Source: Chromera velia
Taxonomy: Eukaryota; Sar; Chromeraceae
Direction: 5' to 3'
DNA length: 42,500 nt
Assembly (NCBI GenBank): GCA_018398765.1
Contig: JAHBMJ010005900.1
Span: 8,257-50,756 of the forward strand
The position numbers and the translations under genes were made by a program. Of the stretch, positions 980 to 40,400 are shown one piece after another; within the stretch, counting starts at the first letter, position 1, and the number at the start of each line of letters is the position of its first letter. The notes below the pieces were generated by a model. That model was not told the origin of the DNA. It did not search any database and saw only the letters and a program-made list of their open reading frames with translations.

Positions 980-3056
980 TCACGAGACGAAAACTCCCGC
1001 CGTGCTTGCAGTGAGAAAGCACGCGAGATTTGACGCGGCAAAGGCGTACCATGCGAGGCTTGCCACTTCACTCTTGCGAGCTTCTGCAAGTGTACCAAGC
1101 CCCCCCACCATCACTCCAATGCTCCCTACATTCGAAAACCCGCACATCGCAAATGTGAGGATCACCTTTGCCCTCTCCCCCAAAGCCTCCTGAACTTCAG
1201 GCGTTACCATTCTCGAGTAAGCAACAAACTCATTCAAAAAGATTTTCATCCCCAAAAGCTCACCTGCAATCAGGCACTCGCCATTTTGCCACGGCACGCC
1301 CATCAAGAATGCAAGAGGCGACAGGACGTAGCTGCAAATCTTCTCAAGAGACAAACTTTCAAGTCCCACAAAAAAACCAAACCACGACAAAACGGCATTC
1401 ACGAACGCGACTGCTGAAATAAACACAAGAAGCTGCGCTCCAATGTTCAATGTCAGAATGATCGCTGCTGCAGTTCCGTTCGCCAAGGCCTCAACCAAAC
1501 TCGAGTCAGGACTTTTCATCAATTCCTCCACATCCACAGCATCAGGATTCTCCTCCTCTTTTTCATTCCCTCCATTCTTTTTCTGATCTTTCGATTTCAC
1601 TGTCTCCTCTCCTTCCGCTCCAACACCCCCCTCCACTTTCTTCCCATTCCGAGGCCAATTGCGGGGATCCACTACTGCCCCTGCACTCCAAATCCGTGTC
1701 TCCATCCCAAACAGATTCCGTCCTCTCGCCCCTCTCCCTCTACTAGGCAACCCTCCTTCCTCTAGGTCCCCCTCTCCTGCTGCCACTTCTCCCTGCTCAC
1801 TCATCGCACCTCCCCCCCCCCTCCCTGCAGTCCTCTGTGCCTGTCTGCAAGAGCCCAAAAGTTCCCTCTCCCTCTCCTTTTCTTGTTGGATACTGCCCGT
1901 GCTTGTGAAGCTGCTGCTGCTTGCCTGACCTCCCGGGCCCCCCAGGGCACTCTCTTCCCGCTCTGTCATTGCCCTTCCACACAAACCTGCCGCCTCGTCC
2001 TCTCTTGTCCCTTCCCCTTCATCTCTGCTCTCTCTCTGGAGACCCACAATGCCTCCCGTCCCCTGCAGAGGGGGTGGGGGGCACATTGAGGGCGAACGTG
2101 TGGGGACACTGGAGCCAGGAGACGGCCCCGGAAAGGCCATTCCAGACTCCTCAAGTGCCCCATCGGTCTCATCTCCGTTCCGCTCCCCTCTCTGCCCCCT
2201 CTCTTCATCAAGTGCACCCCCAACCTCTCCTCCCTCTTCCCCCTCTTGCTCTTCTCCTGCTTCCTTTGCATGAGAGAGAGCGAGGGAGGTTCCGTGAGGC
2301 AGAAAAAGCTTCGACATTGCCAGCGCTGCGGGTGCAGTCATCACTGAGGCCGCAAGGAGCCCTGAGGGAGAGATCCCCATGGCGATGTAAACACCCAGCA
2401 CGGTGCCTGCAATGGAGGCCATGCCGCTAGTCATCAGAGCAAACAGCTCAGAGGAGGAGAGACGAGGAATGAGGGGGGAAATCAGAAGGGGGGCCTCGGT
2501 TTGTCCAAGGAAGATGTTCGCAGCCGCAATCAGCGACTCGGGACCTGCACGGAACCGGGAGGGCAGAAAGCTTTTGTGAGGGGAGTGTATCGAGTGAATA
2601 TCAAAAGCTTTGGACTGAAAGGAGGGGCTGCCATGTGAACAGGAGATGGAGTGAATATCAAAAGGTTTGGACTGAAAGGAGGGGCTGCCATGTGAACAGG
2701 AGATGGAGTGAATATCAAAAGCTTTGGACTGAAAGGAGGGGCTGCCACGTGAACAGGAGATGGAGTGAATATCAAAAGGTTTGGACTGAAAGGAGGGGCT
2801 GCCATGTGAACAGGAGATGGAGTGAATATCAAAAGGTTTGGACTGAAAGGAGGGGCTGCCATATGAACAGAAGATGGAGTGAAAATCAAAAAGGAGTGAA
2901 AGGAGGGGCTGCCATGTGAACAGAAGAGGTCTTGCCAGACAGCAGCTAAAAAAGAGAGCTCCAACTGAGTGCACGTCCTTCTTTCAGTCTTTCCCAGCGT
3001 TTGAAACTCTTTGTCCGTCTGCTCCTCCGTGTGTGTGGAGTGTCTGTCCGTGTGCG

Positions 3057-5551: not shown

Positions 5552-8500
5552 ATGGGTCAAAGCTGCTCAGGAGCCACTCACTTGGGTCACGACGACTCGA
5601 GTCACGAAGTGCTAGTGCTCTTCGGTTCCCAAACCGGCACTGCGGAGAAGTACGCGCGCACGGTTTCGATATTCGCCCGAGCACACGGTTTGGAGATCGA
5701 AACACTGCCTATGGATGCGTACACCGCAGACAAGCTGAAACACGAGAGGCGCCTGGTGGTTTTCATCTGTTCGACCTACGGGGCTGGAGAATTTCCGAGC
5801 AACGCCCAGAGGCTCTGGAAGTCTTTGTGCAAGGACAACCTGAAACTTCCGGGGCTTCGATACGTCATTTTTGGTCTTGGGAACTCATCTAACGAACTGT
5901 TCAACCAGGCCGCCAAGAACCTAGACACCAGACTGCAGGAGACAGGAGCGACCCCTGCGCACAACACAGGCTTCGGAGATGAGCTGGCCGAAGCAGGACA
6001 CGACACGGCCTTCCGACCCTGGCTGAGCTCTCTGTGGAAGGCTACGGGGACTTCGGCTGCTACGTGCAAGGAGCTGAAGGGGGCGTACAAGTTGGGCACG
6101 GTTCCGAATCAGAAGGGGGCACTTGGCCTTCCGGTGCCCTCCGGGTTCGTGGAAGTGCCCGTGAAAGCGAAAAAGAAGCTGACCAAGGACGGAGCCCAGA
6201 GGGATGCGTACCTGATGCAACTGGATCTGCAAGCAGCTGGACAGTCGTATCAGATTCTGGATCACGTTAGGGTGATGCCGCAGAACAGACCCGGTGAGTG
6301 AACTTCCCGTGAGTCTGGAGTGTAGAAGTGACGGTTAGGTTACTTCGCTGCTTCTCCGCCCCAGGCCGACTCCTTCTCTGCGGAGGTCCGCACAGTGCGT
6401 GAAACAAAAGAAGGAAGGAACGCAGACAGCAAAAAATTTGCCCGAGAAGAAACCTTCTGCTTTATGGCTGCAAAAGTGAAATGCATCGGCCTGCAGCGAG
6501 GACTATTTTTCTTACAACGTGCCCGTGTTGTCTTTTTTTTTGCTACTATGTTGTGGCTTGCAGAAATTGTGAACCGAGTGATTACGTCTCTGAAGCTTCA
6601 GGGGGACCTGCAGGTGTGCGTGCAGCCTGCGAAGGGAACAGCACCCTCAGTCCTCGATGGAGCGGTCAGTCAGGCTGTTTAATTTCTCTGCTTCTTTTCT
6701 TTGGGCTTCCCGTACTCTTTTTAACTTCGTTTGGTTCTCTCTTTGCATGGGTTTTTCCATGTGTAACTTCTGTTGCTCACCCTGCCTTCGTCTGTTCGTT
6801 CCTTTCAAGACTCTCTGGTGCCCCCCCCGGTATCCTCGTGACTCTTTCTTGAGTGCGGTCGCCCCTAGTGAGCTCTGTACTTAGGCGGAAACGCCAACCG
6901 GAAGCATGTCCCAAAAAAAGAGCTATTGTGCTCCTTGGTGTTTCTACTGTCCTCCCTCTCCTCCCCGATCAGTGCGGGTCTGTGTCGGAGATCATCACCA
7001 AATACCTCGACGTGAGCGGTCTTCCCTCTCGATCCACTCTCGACATCCTCGCACTCAGGTCCGTCTGCTCTGTCTGGTGTGTGCTTCTGTTTCATTCAAT
7101 TCTTGTCGGACGAGTTCGGGAGACCAAATAGAAAGAGAAAAGAAAAAGAGGGCCTTGTGCGCATGTACCCCTCCCACGCAGCCCGCCTGCAGACAACAAA
7201 GAGCTTGACCCAACTTCCTGTCTGTCTGTCTGTCTCCCTTCTGAAACCGCGGAAGGGCAGGGAAGGGAAGGGAAGAAAAGGGAATGGAAAAGACCGGCAG
7301 GGAATATGAAAGAGCAAGTAAGGAGACGCAGTCTCTCTCTCAATCCATCCATCTATCTATCTATCTATCTGTGTGCGCGTTCGTGCGTGAGTGAGTGAGT
7401 GAGTGTGTGTGTGTGTGTGTGCGCGTGTGCAGGTGCAAGAACGAGGAGGAACGACAGAGACTGGAGGACATGGCAACGGACGTGTCGAAGGAGTCTGCCT
7501 ACACGAAGGTGGCCTCTGAGGGGGTGATGTCCTTTGCCGATGTCCTCGAAGAGTTCCCCTCCATCTCCATGTCCTTCATCGACCTCCTCTCCATCTGTCC
7601 CCTGATCCAACCCCGAGTCTACTCGATTGCCTCCGACCCCGATGCTTCGGGAAAGGGCCTTCCCGAGTTCGCCTTCATGGTCGAGAGAAGGGAGGACGGG
7701 CTGAGGAAGAGAGAACTGAGAGGTCTTGCCACAGACTTCCTCGCAGGCCTCGGGGAGGGCCAAAACGTGGCAGTGGAGGTGGTCAGGGGTGTTCTCTCTC
7801 TCCCGGACTCCTCAAAGCCCCTCGTGGCCCTGGCTCTGAGCTCCGGTATCGGGCCCGTCCGAGCTATTCTCCAGAGAAGGGCCAGACTCGTGCGCCTCCC
7901 CCATGAACGCTCTGCCTCAGCCCCGATCTCTGTGTACTTTGGTTTCCGGAGAGCGGCGACGGACTTTTTGTTCCAGGACGAGCTGGAGGCATGGAAGGCG
8001 TCAGGGGTGATCGACCGCCTGGTGCCTGTCGCTTCACATGATCAGGTGAGTGAATGATCCTGGTGTGGGTGTGTAGGGAGGAGGGAGGGAGGGGCCTGTA
8101 TAGCAGTATCAACGCTAGGCATGAATGTGAGTCTCCTTTCTGTCTGTAGGGTTTCTGTCGGCACAAGCAGCTGATCAGATGGAGAAGAGTATTTGAGAAG
8201 GAAAAGGGCCGCCTCTGGATTTCTCTCTATCAGCTGGTGTGTTCAAAAAGAGAAGAGAGAGGGGTGGGGGAATGCGTGTTTTTCTTGGTAAAGTCCTCCC
8301 TCCCTGTCTTGTCTTCAAATAGGCATACATCAAAAACTCCTATCTGTTCCCCGATCTGCTCGTGGTCGGAGAAGGATGACGAAAGGATGTATGTATCTCA
8401 TGAAGCACGCATGCATATGTTGAGGAGAGGAATGGCTGGCTGAGGCAGTGAATGGGGCGTGGCGGATTGGATTTTTGAAACAGAAATGTCGGCGTTGCAG

Positions 8501-11500
8501 AAGGAGATGCTGACCCCGATGAACAAACTGGAGGAGGATCACGAGTACGTGGGGAGGCAGCTGGTGAACAACAAGGGCGTGTTCCTCTACTGCGGCCTTG
8601 GGGGGGCTGTGCCTCTGCTGGTGGAGAGGGGACTGCGCAGGTGGGGGGGAGTGAGTTCTGCAGAGGGGGGGGCTTCTCTTTGTGGTCGAATTTTGTCTTG
8701 CCTTTGATTTGCTGTCTCTGGAGACGGGGGTGTGTTTTTGTCTCTTGGGGCAGCTTCTCGTTCATCGTCTGAAGCAGAGGAGGGAGGGCATCTGTGCGTG
8801 CCTGTCTTTGTCTGAGACATTTTGTGTTGGTAGGTGAAGGTTTGTGAATCTGTCTGAGCTTCACCATCAGAAAATATGTCCGACCGGTACATCTTTGTTA
8901 AGTAAGCACAAGTTGCTTGCATTTCATGTGTGTCCGATTGAACGCAATGTGCTTGCTTCACTGCAGGTCTCTGAAGCACTCGACCGCAGACTACCAGGAG
9001 GAGCTGTCGATCATGAGGAGAGAGGGGCGTCTCCTGGAGGAGCACTACTCTCCGGACAGGGACAGCGAGAACGCGTTCAGGAAGGAGGCAGCCGAGGCAC
9101 TCACCAAACCCCCCATGTTCTGCTTCCAGTGCGAGCAGACGATGCAGAACAAGGGGTGCACTTCGGTGAGGCCGCTGTCTCTTCTTTTCTTTTCTTTTCT
9201 TTTCTTCCTTTGCAGATGCAAGAGAGACGGAATTAACGGAATAACAGAAGGATGAGGCCCGATGTTGGAGACAGAAAGAAAAAGCTGTACAGATTGTGAC
9301 GAAATAGCATAAAAATCGAACAAACGAACGAATGACAAGTCGATTAAGCAACCGGGGGATCGAAAAAGTAAGAGATCCATCGCTTCTCTTGTGCTTGTTG
9401 ATCGATCGATTTCTTTGAAGCAGCCTGACTGCAAACGGAAACGGTCCAGTGAAAGAAGAAGAAATCGAGAGAGTGTGGCTCGCGTCAGTTGAAATTTGCG
9501 AGGCATGTTTGAGTTTTTGGTGTCGTGACAGCACTTCTTCCTCAGACTCCTTCCTTCCTTACATCTTTCCCTCCTTCCTTTTGTTGACGTTACCCAACTT
9601 TCTGAATGCAGGTGGGTGTATGCGGGAAGACACCCCACGTGGCTGCCCTCCAAGACCTGACAGTCCAGTCTGTCAAGCTGATCGGGCACTTTGCTCACAG
9701 GCTGAGGACTCTGAGGAAGCAACACGGACTGTCGGAGGGAGAGACGGAATGCGAGGAGGCCAACAGGTCAGTCAGGGTCAAAGCTAAGGGGTGTGATGCG
9801 GATGGTCGCTCCCTTCTCTCTTTCCCCTTCTGTGAAAATTGCAAAGACGCATTCGTCACACTCGACCATTCCCCCTTCTCCATGTGTCTCTCTCTCTCTG
9901 TCCTTGTGGATGCAGATTCACCCTGGAGGCGATGTTCTCCACTCTGACGAACGTCAACAACGACCCGAGTAGGTTCGACGACCTTCTGGAGGACGCAGAC
10001 AGACTCACAAAGCAGCTCAGACAGATGTACACGGACGCGTGCAAGAAAGTGAACGTGCAGGCAACGGAGCCTCGCACCCTCCCCGTCCCCCCCCAGACCC
10101 GAAAGATGAGAGTCGCGGACATCGAGGACCTCGCGTATGACGTGGGCGTGCACCAGAGGTGGGTAGGTAGGTTGCCGGCCGTTGCCCTCTTGTTCTCTTT
10201 TTTTTTTTTTTTCTCGGAGACCCCGGAGGGCTCTGTCTGCCGTCTCTTGTGAACTGGATGGGTGCGAGGAGCATACACGAGAACAGAATCAACGAAAGGA
10301 GCATGTGACTGCGTGTGAGGGTCGACCGTTCTGCATTGCCGGCCGTAGTGCTTTTCGCACTCCGTTTCGCGGCTTGAATAGAAACACACCTTCGTCCTTT
10401 TTTTCTCTCTTTGTCGTAACGACTCTCCTGCACTGGACTGGAGGCCGACAAACACCTGCATGTACTTCCTGTCCCCTCACGTTGAAAGCACAAGAGGGAG
10501 GGAGGGCCCGTGATTCCTCGCAGGAAGGAAGGAACGGTCTGTCTGCATCGATACATATATAGGGTTTGTGCATGCGCGTATGATAGATGGTTTCCCTTTC
10601 CTTTGCCGCGTACGCTTCTTCGAGCATGCAGGTTTGTGAAGGAGAGTGAGGAGGACAAGAACGTGGCAGGGGTCTGCGAGATGCTCACGTACGGCCTGAA
10701 GGGGCTGTGTGCGTATGCTGACCACGCGATGCTCGGGCACGTGGAGGACCAGAGAATATACGAATTCGTCCACGAGGCCCTCGCTTTTCTGGTGGCCCCG
10801 GAAAGACGGGATCTCGGGGCCGCCCTCCAGATGTGCCTGAAGGCAGGGGAGGTGAATGCCCTTGTGATGCAGAAACTGTACGAAGCGAACTCGAAACTGG
10901 GGGTGCCTGAGCCCACAGAGGTCCCTGTGACGCCTCGGGAAGGAAAAGGAATCCTCATCTCTGGTCTGTCTGTCTGTCGGTCTTTCTGTCTATCTGTCTG
11001 TCTGGCCTACCTGCTGTTTCTGAGTGGATGTATTTGTTCCTCTCTTGGTTCACCTACCTCCTGATACCTCCAGCTGTGCATGTCTCTTTTGTCCTCTGTG
11101 AGTCTGTGTCTCGTCGGCCCCACCCTCTCTCTCCCCAGTAGTGTCAGTGCCAGCCTGCGTCTGTTGACAAAAATTCCTCTGTATGATGGTGTCTCCCCTA
11201 CCAAATCCCACTTTTCTTCAGGCCACGACCTGTTCATGCTCAAATCCCTGCTCGACTACCTGAAGTCCTCCGGTAGCTCGGACGTCCTCGTGTACACCCA
11301 CGGGGAGATGCTGCCTGCCCACTCCTACAAGGCCTTGAAGGAGACGGGACTGCTGGCAGGGCATTTCGGGGGGGCGTGGCAGAGGCAGGCCGTCGAGTTC
11401 CCCCACTTTCCGGGGGCAATCCTCGCCACCACCAACTGCCTGACCGAGCCAAAGGAACCGTACAAGGACAGAATGTTCACAGTTGGGGCAGTGGGCTGGC

Positions 11501-13258
11501 CAGGATGCAAAAATCTTGGGACAGTCCCTGAGAAGGTCTGTCTGAGCATCCCTTTATTCATTCATGAGTCCGAAACGCCCGGTTTTGACGCACGCACGTG
11601 CGGTTGTTTTTGGTCAACTTTTTCAAGCGAGCAAGAATTGGGTGCACAGGTTTTCTTCCTTTCTCTCTCTCTTTCTCTTCCGATGATTGTGCACAGGCCT
11701 TTGTGTGAGAAGGGTGGTCTTCTTTCATCTGCCCTGCTCTCGTCCTTCGTCTACGCACGCCGTGCCCTTGCAGGTCTTGCGTCTCGGTCTTGCGTCTCTC
11801 TCTTGCTCTGAGACTTCCGTTTCTGCTTTCCTTTCCCACTCTCGTGAAAGGAGCGACTAGAAAGTCTTCCTTCTTTCATTACCTGTCTGCCTACCTCTTG
11901 TCTGCCGTTCTGCAGGTTGACTGGAAGCCCCTTGTCGAGAGTGCGAGGGGAGAGAGGGGATTCCGTTCAAACGACAAGAGCTTTTCCTACCCTGTCAGAC
12001 CGGGAGGAAGGGCGGTGGACAAATTGATGGTCAGGCAGGCAGTCAGGCTGGTTGAGGGTCTCGTCAGTAAAAGAGGGAGGGGGGGCAGGTTTCAACTGCT
12101 TCGATCATCCCTCGATCGATCTTGCTGTTTCGTGGTCCTCAGGATAGGTCTTGAGCCTGTTCCCCTCCCCTCCCCGTGATGACGTGAATTAATCCGCCTG
12201 TCTGGATGGTATCTATCCTTCTTGACGGTGCTTCTCCCTCCTTTTACTTCCCTCTGCGTGTCTGTCTGTCTATCTGTGTGTACATCCAGGTCGGGTTTGG
12301 TCACGAGGCTGTTCTGGGTGCCGCTCCGACGATCATCGAGGCGATCAAGGCAGGGGCCATCACCCGGTTCCATCTGATCGGGGGGTGTGACGGGTTTGAG
12401 GGCAACAGGAGTTACTACTCGGACCTGGTGGAGGCCCTGGAACCCACCTCTGTGATTTTGACTCTGGGGTGCGGAAAGTTTAGGGTCAACGACCACGACA
12501 AGGGCACGATTGGAGACTCTGGGATTCCACGGATCCTCGACATGGGCCAGTGCAACGATTCGTGGAGTGCCGTGCAGGTGGCACTCAAATTGGCTGAGGT
12601 GCTAGAGTGTGAGGTGAAAGACCTCCCCCTCAGTCTGACCCTCTCGTGGTTTGAGCAGAAGGCAGTTGCTGTCCTCCTCACCTGCCTCCACTTAGGGCTG
12701 AAGCCGATCCGGGTGGGCCCCTCTCTGCCTGCGTTTGTCACTCCCGACGTTCTCTCTGTTCTCGTCAAGGACTTCGGTCTGAAGGTCATCGGTGACCCTG
12801 ACGAGGACGCCAAAGAGATGGCGGCAGCGGTGGGCATGGCGTGAGTGAAGACAAGAGAATGTTCGTGAGCATCTTCACCAGTACTGCCATATACAAAGAA
12901 GTGAGAGAGAGAGAAACAAAGAAGGAATTGCTGCAGCGAGATGCAGTGCGTGGGTGGGCGATGGCTTTTCACTTATTTAAAGGTTGACTTGGACTGAGTC
13001 GCTCGAAAGAAGAAAAAAGAAAGAAAGAAAACAGATGGAAAGCTGTGAATCTTTGAAAAGTCATAAAGGGGAGAAAGGAAGGACGGCAGAGCAAGGCCGA
13101 GTTGTTCCGGTCTGCCGAGAGAGAGAGAGAGAGAGAGAAAGAAAGAAAGAAAGAAAGGAAGGAAGGAAGGAAGGAAGGAAGGAAGAGAAATTGACTAGAC
13201 TGATGCCACCTGTCTGCCTTTTTTTTACAGGATGGTTTCACCAGAACTGACTGTATGA
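5552..13258 (+). CDS. Diflavin reductase-hybrid cluster protein fusion (NADPH-driven HCP / hydroxylamine or NO reductase)
   Basis: Exons: 5552-6293, 6564-6664, 6973-7058, 7433-8045, 8501-8640, 8967-9165, 9612-9766, 9916-10158, 10632-10963, 11222-11535, 11916-12062, 12290-12840, 13231-13258. They sum to 3651 nt in one frame (1216 residues). Residues 18-165 are an FMN flavodoxin domain (GSQTGTAE 25-32, STYGAGEF 74-81, FGLGNSS 107-113). About 200-560 is a cytochrome P450 reductase-type FAD/NADPH module (RVYSIAS 371-377, SHDQK 511-515). HCP starts at Met611. Cys613, 616, 625 and 631 have the CX2CX8CX5C spacing of class I [4Fe-4S] sites. His872, Glu899, Cys943, Cys1057, Cys1085, Cys1112 and Glu1146 correspond to all seven hybrid-cluster ligands. 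Known HCPs reduce NO and hydroxylamine and need a separate reductase; here the reductase appears built in. The N-terminus MGQSCS suggests acylation. The last exon is uncertain: reading through the donor stops at 12844. Confidence 0.92.
12836..13258 (+). other. Alternative 3' end: stop codon overlapping a consensus splice donor
   Basis: After the codon for Met, the sequence GGC GTGAGT can be read two ways. Unspliced, GCG TGA gives Ala and then a stop at 12842-12844. Spliced at the GTGAGT donor (12841) to the acceptor after a pyrimidine run (exon from 13231), the protein instead ends AMVSPELTV with TGA at 13256-13258. Both products differ only at the extreme C-terminus, outside the cluster ligands. 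I favour splicing because both sites are strong. The 390 bp intron contains GAAA and GGAA repeats (about 13118-13188). Confidence 0.6.
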
Positions 13259-16689: not shown

Positions 16690-17995
16690 GTGACTGACGG
16701 ATGGATGGATGGAAGGAAGGAAGGAAGGATGGATAGATAAATTGATGGATGGAGTGATGGAGTAAGTGAGGGATGGAGTGATGGAGTGAGGGATGGATGG
16801 ATGGATGGATGCATGCATGCATGAAGTGATGGAGTGATGAAGGATGGATGGGTGGATGGAGTGAGGGAGTGACTGAGAGATGGATGGATGGATGGATTCA
16901 TGGATGGATGGAGTCTAGGGATGGAGTGATGCATGAGGGATGGATGGGTGAATGGAGTGAGGATGTGACTGAGGGGTGGATGGATGGAAGGATGGATAGA
17001 TAAATTGATGGATAGATGGATGGAGTGAGTGAGGGATAGATTGATGGAGTGAGTGAGTGAGTGAGTGAGGGATGGATGGATGGATGGATGGATGGATGGA
17101 TGGATGGAGTGAGGGATGGATGGATGGATGGATGGATGGATAGATGGATGGATGGATGGAGTGATGGAGTGATGAAGGATGGATGGGTGGATGGAGTGAG
17201 GGAGTGACTGAGAGATAGATGGATAGATGGATGGATGGATGGGTGGATGGAAAGATGGATATTAGATAAATTGATGGATGGATGGATGGAGTGAGTGAGA
17301 GATGGATTGAAGGAGTGAGTGAGGGATGGATGGATGGAGTGATGCATAAGGGATGGATGGGTGGATGGAGTGAGGGAGTGACTGAGGGGTGGATGGATGG
17401 AAGGATGGATAGATAGATGGATGGATGGATGGATGGATGGATAAATTGATGGATGGAGTGATGTAGTGAGAGAGAGATGGATGAAGGAGTGAGTGAGGGA
17501 TGAATTCATGGATGGATGGAGTGATGCATGAGGGATGGATGGGTGGATGGAGTGAGGAAGTGACTGAGGGGTTAATGGATGGAAAGATGGATAGATAAAT
17601 TGATGGATGGAGTGATAGAGTGAGTGAGGGATCATGGATTGAAGGAGTGAGTGAGGGATGGAGTGATGGAGTGATGCATAAGGGATGGATGGGTGGATGG
17701 AGTGAGGGAGTGACTGAGGGGTGGATGGATGAAAGGATGGATAGATAAATTGATGGATGGATGGATGGAGTGAGTGAGGGATGGATTGAAGGAGTGAGTG
17801 AGGGATGGATGGATGGAGTGATGCATAAGGGATGGATGGGTGGATGGAGTAGGGGAGTGACTGAGGGGTGGATGGATGGAAGGATGGATAGATAAATTGA
17901 TGGATAGATGGATGGATGGAGTGAGTGAGGGATGGATTGATGGAGTGAGTGAGGGATGGATTGATGGAGTGAGTGAGGGATGGATGGATGGAAAG
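16690..17995. repeat. ATGG/GTGA satellite array, ~1.3 kb, with higher-order structure
   Basis: Nearly all of this stretch is built from GATG, GATA and GTGA tetramers. A larger unit of about 150 bp is visible: the landmark GATAGATAAATTGATGG recurs at about 17587, 17739 and 17887, with earlier decayed copies. Minus-strand frames hundreds of codons long read as His/Pro/Ser/Ile peptide repeats, an effect of the tetramer composition. I do not call them genes. Confidence 0.9.
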
Positions 17996-20765: not shown

Positions 20766-23700
20766 CTAGAACCCGTGTGATGCCAATAAATTTATCACTG
20801 GTACAGAATCACGGTGCAAGACTAGGTGGGCACTGATGGCATTCGAACGAAAGGCCGTAGCTGGGGCGTTGAGCGGATCAGCCCATTCCAGCCCCTTCCT
20901 CATCAGCTTCTTCATGTCGGGCGGCATCGTTGTTCTCCTCTTCTTCTTCTTCCTCCTCCTCCTCCTCCTCGCCTTCCTCTGACTCAGGCTGGGGCTCAGC
21001 CTCGTACTCCATCTCTGGTTCATCCGAAGGGTCAAATTCCTCCAACGCACTCAGCTTCCCCTGCTCCCTCGCCCTCTCCCACGCAGCCCTGGCGGACTCG
21101 CAGAAATGCGCTTCTCCCCCCTCCGCCTCGAGGCCCTGTTGGCCAGACAGCAACAGCGTGTGCAATCTCGTGAGGGAGTCAGAGCCAAGGGTGTCAAAGA
21201 AATCAGACACACCCCGATGGCTCACTCGGTTGCTCTTCAGGTCCAATTCGCGAAGACCGTCACACTCATGCGAGCGGAAGATCTCGGCGAGTTTCTTCAG
21301 CTTTGCGTCATCAATTTCACATTGTGCGAGGTCAAAAACGTACACACTGTTGAGTTTCTTTGACCTCTCTGCAAAGTCATCGACAGACTCGGAGGAGTCG
21401 GACGGTGCACCTCGGACGGTGCACTTGCGACAAGCGACGACAGTGCTTCCTCTCCCACCCGTCCCACTCTCAAACTCACCCCAGCCAAGCAGTTTGGCAT
21501 TCCCGCCTCACTCTCAGCAATAGCTTCAAGAATCGGGTCTACGCTAATTCCGTACGCATCTGGGCGGATTCGGAAACCCATAAGATCCATTGGGGGGGGG
21601 AACCTGCCCTCCCTGATAGCATCAGACACAATCCCCACCCCCTTCTCATCCAACCGAAACCGGAAGGGGTCCACATCTGCGAAGAAAGAACGAAACGGGT
21701 GCCAAAGCGATGGCAGCCTGCCGGATGTCAGAACAGCCATCGCTGCGCCCCCCGCGTCCACGACGTTCGTGGCGGAGCAGTCAAGAATACGGAGATGTGG
21801 GAGTCCACCCGGGCTTTCGAGGATTCCTTCCATCAACTCCTCCCACGCCTCTGTCTGCACATCAAAATTCTCACCCAAATCTAGCACTTCAATCTCCTCC
21901 AGTGCCCCCGCCTTGACTGCTTCAGCCAACCCTCTAAGCCCTTCATCTGACAGATTGCAATCATTCAAAGCCAGATTTGTCACATGTGGAAGTTTCCCCC
22001 CCACAATCGCTTGACCTAGCAGGGAGAGCACCTCACCCGCTGTTGTGCTCCACAGATGCAACGCACTCAATTTGGAGAGACCCCCCTCGCTGGCTACCAA
22101 CCCTTCAAAGAAATCTCTCCAAGCACCGCTCTCTACGTCCTGGTTCTGAGACAGATTCAAATCTGTCAGCTCACCCATGGCCTCCCCTTTTATGGCCCGC
22201 GTGAGCCCTGCAACGCTTTCTTCAGTCAGGAAGGACCACTGGAGGTTCAGCTCCGAAAGTCTTGGCAACTTTCCAGACAACAATGCATCGCCCAAAGGGG
22301 CGACACCGACCCCCGCGTCACTCTCTGAAAGGTCTATCGACCTCAAGTGAGGCATGCAGTCCGGCCTCACTCTCCGCAATCGCCCCGCCTGCATAAAATT
22401 CGCCCTCCCAGTCCCCCCCGTCCAGTCCATTCTGACCCATGCTCAGAGAAGTGAGATGGACCAGAGCCCCCGCACGTACAGCACTGCCTAGCGCCCCCAA
22501 CCCCGCCCCTGTCAGGCTGCAGCTGTCCAAACTAAGTGCAGACAGATTCCCCAGCTTCCCTGCAATCAGGGCTTTTGCCAAGGACTCTAAGGCCTTTCCT
22601 GCTTTCGTGCTTTGTAACCTCAATTCTTTCAGATGAGGCAAACCCTCCTCTGTCTCTGTTATGGCATACGTCAGGGCCTCCAGCCCGACTCTTCCAAAAC
22701 CATCCCTATGATCATGCTGACTTAGGTCGAGTACCTCTAAGCCGGATAGATTCCCAGCCCGCACTGCATCGCCCAGGAGAGACAAGTGGACATCCGACAC
22801 TGCGGCCCGACTGATTCTCAGAATAGAAAAAAAAGGAAGCTTGACAAGGCCAAGAGAGCCGAAAAAACACTCGATGGCCTCTTTCAAATGGTCTTCGGGG
22901 CCAGAAAAGCATGCGTCAATTTCACGAAGAGAGCTCAGTCTCCTTCTCCTAGCTGCCTCTCCCAGCAACCTCACCCACTCAACAGACCCAAGATCATCTC
23001 CATATGCACCCCCGAGCTTCAAGCTCAGACTCTCAAATTGCGGTTCTGATGGAGAGTCAACGAGCGCTCTGAGGAACTGTTCTAGAGACCCCCCCAACAT
23101 TTCGAGACGGAGAGTGCGAACTACCGGGTACCGTCCGTTCGCGAGTGCACGAAGGTCGGCCGTGTTGGCAGCAGTGTTTATGAACAGGCTGACGTTCTTC
23201 AAGGGAGGACACGCGGGAGAGGCAAGAGCCTCAAGGAAGGTTGCCACATCCCCGGCAGACCTCTCGCCCCTCTCAGTCATCAAACTTAGGTTTCTCAGAC
23301 ACCTCAGCTTGTCTGCACCTTGACTAAGCGCCTTTCCAAAGGGGCCCAAAACTTTCTCTGCCCACTTGCACATTGACAAGTCCAAAGTCTCCAACAAAGG
23401 CATATCCCCCCTACCCAAAAACTCAGCAAACTCTTCTATCTTACCGTCGTTAAACCCACATCCCTTCAGAAGCAACACTCGCAGACAGGGCAACGAAGCC
23501 TTGCCTAGGAATCGGCACAAAACGCTCATTCCCGACGTTTCTCTCTGCTCATTCCAACAAATTAAACGGGAATTCTCAGACAAATTCAAAGTCTCCACTC
23601 GAAGGGGAGAAACACTCGCGGCCTCGCAAAGAGCCTACTGCCCCTCTGCACAGAGCCCTGTGTTCGTGAGATCCAATTCTCGTAAAGATGCGGCCTTTTC

Positions 23701-39467: not shown

Positions 39468-39860
39468 GCTGACAGACAGACAGACAGACAGACAGACAGA
39501 AAGACAGACAGACAGACGGACGGACAGACAGACAGAAAGACAGGCAGGCAGACAGACAGACGGACGGACAGACCGACCGACCGAGCGACAGACAGACCGA
39601 CCGACCGACAGACAGACGGACAGACCGACCGACCGAGCGACAGACAGACAGACAGACCGACCGACAGACAGACAGACCGACCGACCGACCGACCGACAGA
39701 CAGACAGACAGACAGACAGGCAGACAGACCGACCGACAGACCGACCGACGGACCGACCGACAGACAGACAGACAGACAAAAACACAGGCAGACAACCAGA
39801 CAGACAGACAGTAAGACAGACAGACAGAAAGACAGACAGACCGACAGTAAGACAGCCAAA
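39468..39860. repeat. GACA/GACC/GACG tetranucleotide array
   Basis: About 390 bp made almost wholly of GACA, GACC and GACG units. Long open frames across it on both strands encode only TDRQ or CLSV-type repeats and are not genes. Confidence 0.95.
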
Positions 39861-40064
39861 TCGGCAAACCTTGTATTTGTCTTTCTTTATTGATGTGCTT
39901 CCTTTCTCTTGTACACCAACCGACAGTCCGACAGATAGGAAAACACAGACAGATGAAATGAATGGAGGAGGGCAGGAAAAGAGAGAGGCAGCCAGACAAA
40001 ACGATAGACGTAAGGACTGGTACATAGGAAGACAGCCAGCAAGGCAAGCAGGAAGGCAGGTTGG

Positions 40065-40150
40065 CAGAGAGAAAGAGAGAGAGAGAGAGAGAGGGAAAGA
40101 TGGAGAGGGGGAGAGAGGAAGAGACAGATAGAGACCGATAGGGACGAGAC

Positions 40151-40183
<33 letters not shown>

Positions 40184-40400
40184 CACAGAGAGAGAGACAG
40201 AGAGAGAGACCGAGAGAGAGACCGAGAGAGGAAGAGAGATAAAAAGAGAGCGAGAGACACACGAAGAGAAACCAAGAAAAAGGAAATTAGAGAGGAGAAA
40301 ATAGAGGGTGGGCGGAAGGGGTCCAGGAGGAAGAGGAAGCGAGAGACGGAGAAAGAGGGAAAGAGAGAAAACAGCAATCAAAAAAAGACATCAAAAGACA
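40065..40400. repeat. GA-rich purine tract
   Basis: Purine-rich (GAGA, AGAGAC) sequence of about 330 bp. Minus-strand frames here read as Ser/Leu repeats continuing from the GACA array and are not considered coding. Confidence 0.85.

What the first reader, a model, noticed from the sequence alone, without database searches (positions are those of the whole stretch)
5552..13258. Diflavin (P450-reductase-type) module fused to a hybrid cluster protein
Seen directly: one continuous 13-exon reading frame carries FMN, FAD/NADPH and then a complete HCP with the four class I-type N-terminal Cys (613, 616, 625, 631) and all seven hybrid-cluster ligand equivalents (His872, Glu899, Cys943, 1057, 1085, 1112, Glu1146). 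Known: HCPs act in NO and hydroxylamine reduction and take electrons from separate partners such as the bacterial Hcr reductase. Pyruvate:NADP oxidoreductase of some protists is a precedent for fusing a P450-reductase module to an Fe-S enzyme. Inference: this is a single-chain NADPH-dependent HCP. I do not recall this architecture being described. The linker between modules is only about 20-40 residues.
Basis: partly seen in the sequence, partly recalled or inferred. Interest (0 to 1): 0.88.

Follow-up and report, generated by a model that had tools for sequence, protein, structure and literature searches.

The report
Reductase-fused hybrid cluster protein in algae
A gene of the alga Chromera velia encodes one protein that joins a flavin reductase to an iron-sulfur enzyme thought to remove nitric oxide; the same joined protein turns up in fungi, water moulds and protists, and it hints at where this enzyme class gets its electrons.

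Summary
The fusion is real. The window is Chromera velia CCMP2878 (100% match to UniProt A0A0G4IEB6). The gene runs 5552-12843, 12 exons, 1197 residues: FMN, FAD and NAD(P)H domains, a 21-residue linker, then a complete class I hybrid cluster protein (HCP). Exon 6 alone encodes the end of the reductase and the start of the HCP.

It is not peculiar to Chromera: 74 of 120 listed homologues carry the fusion, in fungi, oomycetes, an ichthyosporean, Euglenozoa and others. Trees of both halves split the fusions into the same two groups, so one fusion event is likely; interspersed stand-alone HCPs, including cryptophyte ones, suggest later losses.

Best reading: a self-sufficient NAD(P)H-driven NO/hydroxylamine reductase (inferred). 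'NADPH' is not supported: the two basic 2'-phosphate residues occur together in 0 of 74 fusions but 115 of 120 stand-alone diflavin reductases. The electron donor of class I HCPs is described as unknown (PMC10210160), so this is a testable answer. A table footnote (PMC8003979) already mentions such a fusion in Cyanophora.

The parts
5552..12843 (+). Whole gene: diflavin reductase-HCP fusion, 12 exons 5552-6293, 6564-6664, 6973-7058, 7433-8045, 8501-8640, 8967-9165, 9612-9766, 9916-10158, 10632-10963, 11222-11535, 11916-12029, 12290-12840 plus stop 12841-12843; 1197 aa
   Evidence: Introns between these exons GT-AG; identical to UniProt A0A0G4IEB6, 1197 aa
5615..6022 (+). FMN (flavodoxin) domain, residues 22-157
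   Evidence: PF00258 E 2.9e-28; loop T28 in 71 of 74, G29 in 70 of 74 fusions
6152..7733 (+). FAD-binding domain, residues 201-410 (introns included)
   Evidence: PF00667 E 5.7e-32; R371 and Y373 74 of 74, S374 72 of 74 fusions
7821..9051 (+). NAD(P)H-binding domain, residues about 440-589 (introns included)
   Evidence: PF00175 weak (20.8 bits, cut-off 22); model overlays the FAD/NADPH domains of known reductases
8034..8042 (+). Ser511-His512-Asp513, where stand-alone reductases have Ser-Arg-Asp
   Evidence: At 512 His 55 of 74 and Arg 6 of 74 fusions; Arg 116 of 120 stand-alone diflavin reductases
8967..9165 (+). Exon 6: end of the reductase (EEHYS), linker and HCP start (MFCFQCEQTMQNKGCTS) in one exon
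   Evidence: Translation; UniProt model identical
9052..9114 (+). Linker, residues 590-610 (21 aa; 28-37 aa in 72 of 74 fusions, 54 in one)
9115..12840 (+). Class I hybrid cluster protein, residues 611-1197 (introns included)
9121..9623 (+). Four [4Fe-4S] Cys codons: C613 9121-9123, C616 9130-9132, C625 9157-9159, C631 9621-9623
   Evidence: Cys in 73 of 74 fusions at each site, a gap in the other

Best explanation
The gene makes a self-sufficient hybrid cluster protein. A reduced nicotinamide (NADH or NADPH) binds the reductase half and passes a hydride to FAD; FAD passes single electrons to FMN; the FMN domain swings, as in other diflavin reductases, and reduces the [4Fe-4S] cluster at the N-terminus of the HCP half across a short linker; the hybrid Fe-S-O cluster then reduces NO (to N2O) or hydroxylamine (to ammonia), most likely to cope with nitrosative stress under low oxygen or during nitrate use. 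Shown here: architecture, single frame, cofactor ligand residues, predicted folds, shared ancestry of both halves, and loss of the usual 2'-phosphate motif. Inferred: the electron path, the substrate, the coenzyme and the physiological role. The enzyme is one member of an old eukaryotic family that probably arose from one fusion and later lost its reductase half in some lines, cryptophytes among them.
Against: No activity, redox or transcript data for this gene. NAD_binding_1 falls below its cut-off and is listed for only 10 of the 74 fusions (my count of the table). The 2'-phosphate motif is lost, GxGxxP keeps its Pro in 7 of 74, and the second FMN-flanking Tyr is mostly Asn or Thr (45 and 18 of 74), so the reductase half could have another donor or altered flavin chemistry. 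pTM 0.66 leaves the relative placement of the halves open. In the HCP tree the label 'fusion' alone needs 12 changes (at least 6 forced by starred branches), because 23 stand-alone rows lie inside. Other algae in Table 4 of PMC8003979, including the chromerid Vitrella, have an HCP not marked as fused. In Chlamydomonas ferredoxin is the proposed donor (PMC4773151, passages).
Confidence: 0.75

Rival explanations
1. The fused enzyme is NADH-specific rather than NADPH-dependent, so it works like the bacterial Hcp-Hcr pair (NADH driven) built from different parts.
For: Arg and Lys of the S-R-x4-K-x-Y motif occur together in 0 of 74 fusions and 115 of 120 stand-alone diflavin reductases; replacement by S-H-D...F-x-T-P (55, 56, 59 and 62 of 74 for H, F, T, P) and by C-G-x-G-G-x-P. 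HCP reductase is said to oxidise NADH in class II (PMC10210160 passage).
Against: Arg482 is invariant in 74 of 74 and His512 could still contact a phosphate; loss of one motif does not prove a change of coenzyme.
Confidence: 0.45
2. The reductase half does not use a nicotinamide efficiently; it takes electrons from ferredoxin or another flavoprotein, or regulates the HCP.
For: Divergent NAD(P)H domain: NAD_binding_1 under cut-off, altered GxGxxP and CGDA motifs. Ferredoxin is the proposed donor of Chlamydomonas HCP4 (PMC4773151 passages).
Against: Whole FAD/NAD(P)H fold kept in the model; FAD motif R-x-Y-S kept (74, 74 and 72 of 74 for R, Y, S), S511 68 of 74, aromatic residue at 588 (Phe 54, Tyr 20) 74 of 74.
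Confidence: 0.12
3. Annotation artefact: two neighbouring genes merged by the splicing model.
For: Multi-exon model without RNA data in hand.
Against: Reductase end and HCP start lie in one exon; the same fusion in 73 other rows, some with transcriptome-style names; linker length 28-37 in 72 of 74.
Confidence: 0.02
4. The fusion arose several times independently.
For: Patchy distribution; 23 stand-alone HCP rows lie inside the fusion group, and the fusion label needs 12 changes on the HCP tree.
Against: Diflavin halves form one group away from 27 stand-alone references (support 100); same domain order and the same two-way split in both trees.
Confidence: 0.07

Closest known systems
Class I hybrid cluster protein (Desulfovibrio, Methanothermococcus)
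E. coli class II Hcp with its reductase Hcr
   Same: HCP supplied with electrons by a nicotinamide flavoprotein (works like)
   Different: Hcr is a separate protein of another build (recalled: FAD plus [2Fe-2S]); here an FMN/FAD diflavin module is fused, and the HCP half has class I Cys spacing
Diflavin reductases: cytochrome P450 reductase, sulfite reductase flavoprotein CysJ, NDOR1, NOS reductase part
   Different: 2'-phosphate motif replaced, C-terminal HCP, own branch in the tree
Pyruvate:NADP+ oxidoreductase and similar diflavin fusions (recalled)
   Same: Diflavin module fused to a redox enzyme in one chain
   Different: The partner enzyme is an HCP, and the diflavin module is N-terminal (in PNO and NOS it is C-terminal, recalled)
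Cyanophora paradoxa HCP 'fused to a gene coding for sulfite reductase' (PMC8003979, Table 4 footnote d)
   Same: Very likely the same family; P0047 (tig00000882_g5263.t1) looks like it (identified from the name format, recalled)
   Different: Only a footnote; no domain, residue or evolutionary analysis in the passages seen

Membership tests
Hybrid cluster protein, class I | Full-length prismane/HCP domain | tested here: met
   PF03063 1-513 of 513, 430 bits; PRK05290 600 bits over cut-off 367
Hybrid cluster protein, class I | N-terminal Cys with class I spacing | tested here: met
   C613-X2-C616-X8-C625-X5-C631, aligned without gaps to the class I proteins 8cnr, 1e2u and 1gn9; Cys in 73 of 74 fusions at each site
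Hybrid cluster protein, class I | Hybrid-cluster ligands (His, 2 Glu, 4 Cys) | tested here: met
   H872, E899, C943, C1046, C1074, C1101, E1135 present; 72, 74, 72, 72, 74, 73, 74 of 74
Hybrid cluster protein, class I | Hybrid Fe-S-O cluster present; NO or hydroxylamine reductase activity | not testable with these tools
   Needs purified protein
Diflavin reductase (CPR/CysJ) | FMN domain then FAD domain with conserved cofactor motifs | tested here: met
   PF00258 and PF00667 above cut-off; FAD motif R-x-Y-S 74, 74, 72 of 74; but the second FMN-flanking aromatic is mostly Asn or Thr
Diflavin reductase (CPR/CysJ) | NAD(P)H-binding domain recognised by profile | tested here: inconclusive
   PF00175 20.8 bits, cut-off 22; fold kept in the model
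NADPH-specific diflavin reductase | Arg and Lys of S-R-x4-K-x-Y for the 2'-phosphate (roles recalled) | tested here: not met
   Both basic in 0 of 74 fusions, 115 of 120 stand-alone rows
HCP reductase Hcr | FAD domain with a plant-type [2Fe-2S] domain (recalled) | tested here: not met
   No such domain among the 4 Pfam families found
Pyruvate:NADP+ oxidoreductase | Pyruvate oxidoreductase domains | tested here: not met
   No such family or 11

The most novel reading that the evidence does not exclude
An ancient eukaryotic family of self-sufficient, NADH-preferring diflavin-HCP enzymes, formed once and carried as a unit through at least fungi, ichthyosporeans, oomycetes, Euglenozoa, a glaucophyte and a chromerid: the first defined electron donor for a class I HCP, a nitric-oxide/hydroxylamine detoxifying enzyme of eukaryotes that also live with oxygen, and the source of cryptophyte stand-alone HCPs by loss of the reductase half.
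Probability: 0.35. Interest if true: 0.82.

Novelty: new variant of a known kind. Interest (0 to 1): 0.7.

Why it matters
What reduces class I hybrid cluster proteins is stated in print to be unknown (PMC10210160 passage). Here evolution has tied a reductase to the enzyme, which gives a direct, testable answer and a one-protein assay. It also shows that eukaryotic HCPs have at least two histories: a fused family in many lineages, and a green-algal type that groups elsewhere. The changed motif predicts a shift in NADH/NADPH use; among the 120 stand-alone diflavin reductases compared here those residues are nearly uniform.

Tried and rejected

Prokaryotic fusions: a scan of genome contigs with alignment A1 gave 46 loci, all matching only residues 590 or later of the fusion, and a tblastn of residues 1-600 found no diflavin reductase in any of the 46 (flanks up to 3 kb, many cut by contig ends). 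The two patterns used come from the HCP half and are strict, so this is a limited negative. A plasmid search with 112 residues of the HCP N-terminus matched 44 records; the 5 listed are bacterial, 3 annotated hydroxylamine reductase and 2 without annotation.

Led nowhere: the genome search gave no answer, so I cannot say whether Chromera has a second HCP. The chromerid genome paper (PMC4501334), the Euglenozoa paper (PMC7052976), the Preaxostyla paper (PMC10703272), a 2026 osmotroph gene-transfer paper (PMC13345962) and a Chromera mercury paper (PMC6920818) do not hold the HCP words I asked for in their main text (word look-ups only). The paper most likely to discuss eukaryotic HCP evolution (van Lis 2020, FEBS J) is not held, so a description there cannot be excluded. 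Paper searches for Hcr and PNO gave nothing on the fusion in the rows listed. No tRNA and no Rfam family at gathering score in the window.

Limits: one search scored only the 7992 candidates sharing most words, listed 120 of 166 hits, and takes proteins of 0.55-1.75 times the query length, so it favours fusions over 550-residue HCPs; the share of 74 of 120 is not a natural frequency. The 74 include the Chromera protein itself and seven Aphanomyces euteiches rows. Trees use 44 of the 74 fusions, 37 stand-alone and 28 bacterial-type rows, or 27 of 120 diflavin references, chosen by me for spread. Two diflavin rows (P0050, P0075) were under half filled. Many rows are unnamed metagenome proteins, and stand-alone rows from short contigs may be fragments of fusions. 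Platyophrya (P0009, a ciliate) groups with the PhM-4 row and may be a contaminant. Oomycetes group with ichthyosporeans and chytrids while the pelagophyte lies in the other group, so gene transfer or an old duplication is likely; I did not test which. Searches used a 1205-residue model with the 8-residue tail that I later dropped.
Full report
WHAT IS THERE. The window comes from Chromera velia CCMP2878: the spliced protein matches UniProt A0A0G4IEB6 over its whole 1197 residues. The gene has 12 exons, 5552-12843, introns GT-AG. Eleven of these fit a later donor in exon 11; 0 of 73 other fusions have an insert at that junction. Eight fit an exon 13 that skips the TGA at 12841-12843; 70 of 73 other fusions end within 2 residues of the same column, the other three run on by 11, 14 and 23. 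I therefore use 1197 residues, and the last four ligand numbers drop by 11.

LIGANDS. Over 74 fused proteins (Chromera included) the four N-terminal Cys are present in 73 each, and the seven hybrid-cluster ligand equivalents in 72, 74, 72, 72, 74, 73 and 74 (His872, Glu899, Cys943, Cys1046, Cys1074, Cys1101, Glu1135). The Cys spacing X2, X8, X5 aligns without gaps to the solved class I proteins. Classes I and II differ by an insertion in this motif, and class II is thought to be a subgroup of class I (PMC10210160, passages).

A WIDE FAMILY. With the HCP half as query, 166 proteins passed and 120 were listed; only candidates of at least 0.55 of the query length were scored, so short HCPs are under-represented. 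By the precomputed Pfam domains 74 of the 120 carry FAD_binding_1 plus Prismane, and 71 of these also Flavodoxin_1. Named sources are Gonapodya, Basidiobolus, Hyaloraphidium, Polychytrium, Podochytrium and Siphonaria (fungi), Aphanomyces, Achlya and Thraustotheca (oomycetes), Sphaeroforma (ichthyosporean), Chrysophaeum (pelagophyte; group names recalled) and rows labelled PhM_4 (a prokinetoplastid, PMC7052976). The labels Hpha, CFRG, RCo and tig00000882 I read from memory as Hemistasia, Creolimax, Rhabdomonas and Cyanophora. Rows P0006, P0013, P0040 and P0064 carry transcriptome-style names, so a fused mRNA is probably made in relatives. The linker is 28-37 residues in 72 of 74 rows, 21 in Chromera and 54 in one.

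ONE FUSION. Trees were built with 44 of the 74 fusions. HCP halves: all 44, with 23 of 37 stand-alone rows, form one group (support 100) apart from bacterial-type and green-algal HCPs. Because stand-alone rows are mixed in, the label 'fusion' alone needs 12 changes on that tree, at least 6 of them forced by starred branches; I read these as losses or as fragments, but independent fusions would look alike on this tree alone. A smaller IQ-TREE run (50 rows) gives 99 for 24 fusions plus 4 cryptophyte-type rows. Diflavin halves: the 44 fusions are one side of a branch against 27 stand-alone reductases (support 100), which speaks for one fusion. Both trees split the fusions into the same two sets of 22 (supports 97 and 99, 86 and 95), and pairwise distances of the halves correlate (r 0.82, 43 rows, 0 of 1000 permutations as high). 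Related rows inflate such a correlation, so the equal topology is the better evidence. Hemiselmis and Rhodomonas stand-alone HCPs lie inside the group, which suggests that cryptophytes lost the reductase half. In a limited scan no prokaryotic locus had the fusion (46 of 46 HCP only).

COENZYME. In stand-alone diflavin reductases the 2'-phosphate and adenine site is S-R-x4-K-x-Y (roles recalled from rat CYPOR Ser596, Arg597, Lys602, Tyr604). Aligned columns: Arg 116, Lys 116, Tyr 117 of 120 stand-alone rows; in fusions His 55 and Arg 6 of 74, Phe 56 of 74, Thr 59 of 74. Both basic residues together: 0 of 74 fusions, 115 of 120 stand-alone. The CGDA motif becomes C-G-x-G-G-x-x-P: Cys545 63, Gly546 74, Gly548 73, Gly549 74 and Pro552 74 of 74. 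Arg482 is invariant in the fusions. So nicotinamide use is likely (fold, FAD motif and end aromatic kept), but specificity for NADPH is not supported; NADH is as likely or more so. The 74 rows share ancestry, so this is one change, not 74.

HOW IT PROBABLY WORKS. NAD(P)H to FAD to FMN to the N-terminal [4Fe-4S] cluster to the hybrid cluster, then NO or hydroxylamine. Everything after the architecture is inference. For class I HCPs the donor is stated as unknown and reduction by NAD(P)H as exergonic; for class II it is an NADH-oxidising reductase (PMC10210160 passages). In Chlamydomonas, ferredoxin is proposed as donor of HCP4 (PMC4773151 passages). The N-terminus MGQSCSG fits an N-myristoylation pattern (recalled); the length before the FMN domain varies from 0 to 85 residues among 14 rows looked at, so any membrane attachment may be peculiar to Chromera.

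PRIOR KNOWLEDGE. The rows listed show no paper about such a fusion. PMC8003979 (passages and table text) has one footnote: the Cyanophora HCP gene is fused to a gene coding for sulfite reductase. The same table marks an HCP without that footnote in the cryptophyte Guillardia, which fits the loss proposed here, and also in the chromerid Vitrella and in Symbiodinium, so the fusion is not general among alveolates; Chromera was not in that table. van Lis 2020 was not available. Hence: new variant of a known kind, already visible in databases but not, as far as I could find, studied.

Noticed in passing
window 983-2983 (-): Stop-to-stop frame with a Na+-dependent nucleoside transporter C-terminal domain (PF07662, E 2.1e-65) and a weak Gate domain: a concentrative nucleoside transporter next to the fusion gene.
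   Followed up: partly
window 2592-2927: Six head-to-tail copies of a 57-base unit (94% matches) within the span of the transporter frame; 57 is a multiple of 3.
   Followed up: no
window 16699-17992 and 39471-40257: Long strand-biased low-complexity tracts (GGAT-like, then GACA and AG) with strong GC or AT skew.
   Followed up: no
window 21300-23634 (-): Two overlapping frames with leucine-rich repeat matches, probably one LRR gene.
   Followed up: no
P0009, P0027, P0029: HCPs in the fusion group that lack all or part of the diflavin module (P0029: FMN domain directly before HCP): possible partial losses, splice forms or assembly errors.
   Followed up: partly
P0090, P0120, P0097: Green-algal HCP proteins with other long extensions (PF12576, PF12576, PF13855); may be merged gene models.
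   Followed up: no
P0078, P0082, P0085, P0086, P0088, P0091: Prismane domain together with PF01966 (HD domain, name recalled) in proteins of 704-731 residues without a given name: another recurrent HCP fusion.
   Followed up: no
P0109, P0110, P0114, P0116, P0119: HCP joined to PF21349, PF00301 and PF01613 (rubredoxin-type and flavin reductase-type domains, names recalled), 714-723 residues: a second, different electron-donor fusion for HCP.
   Followed up: no
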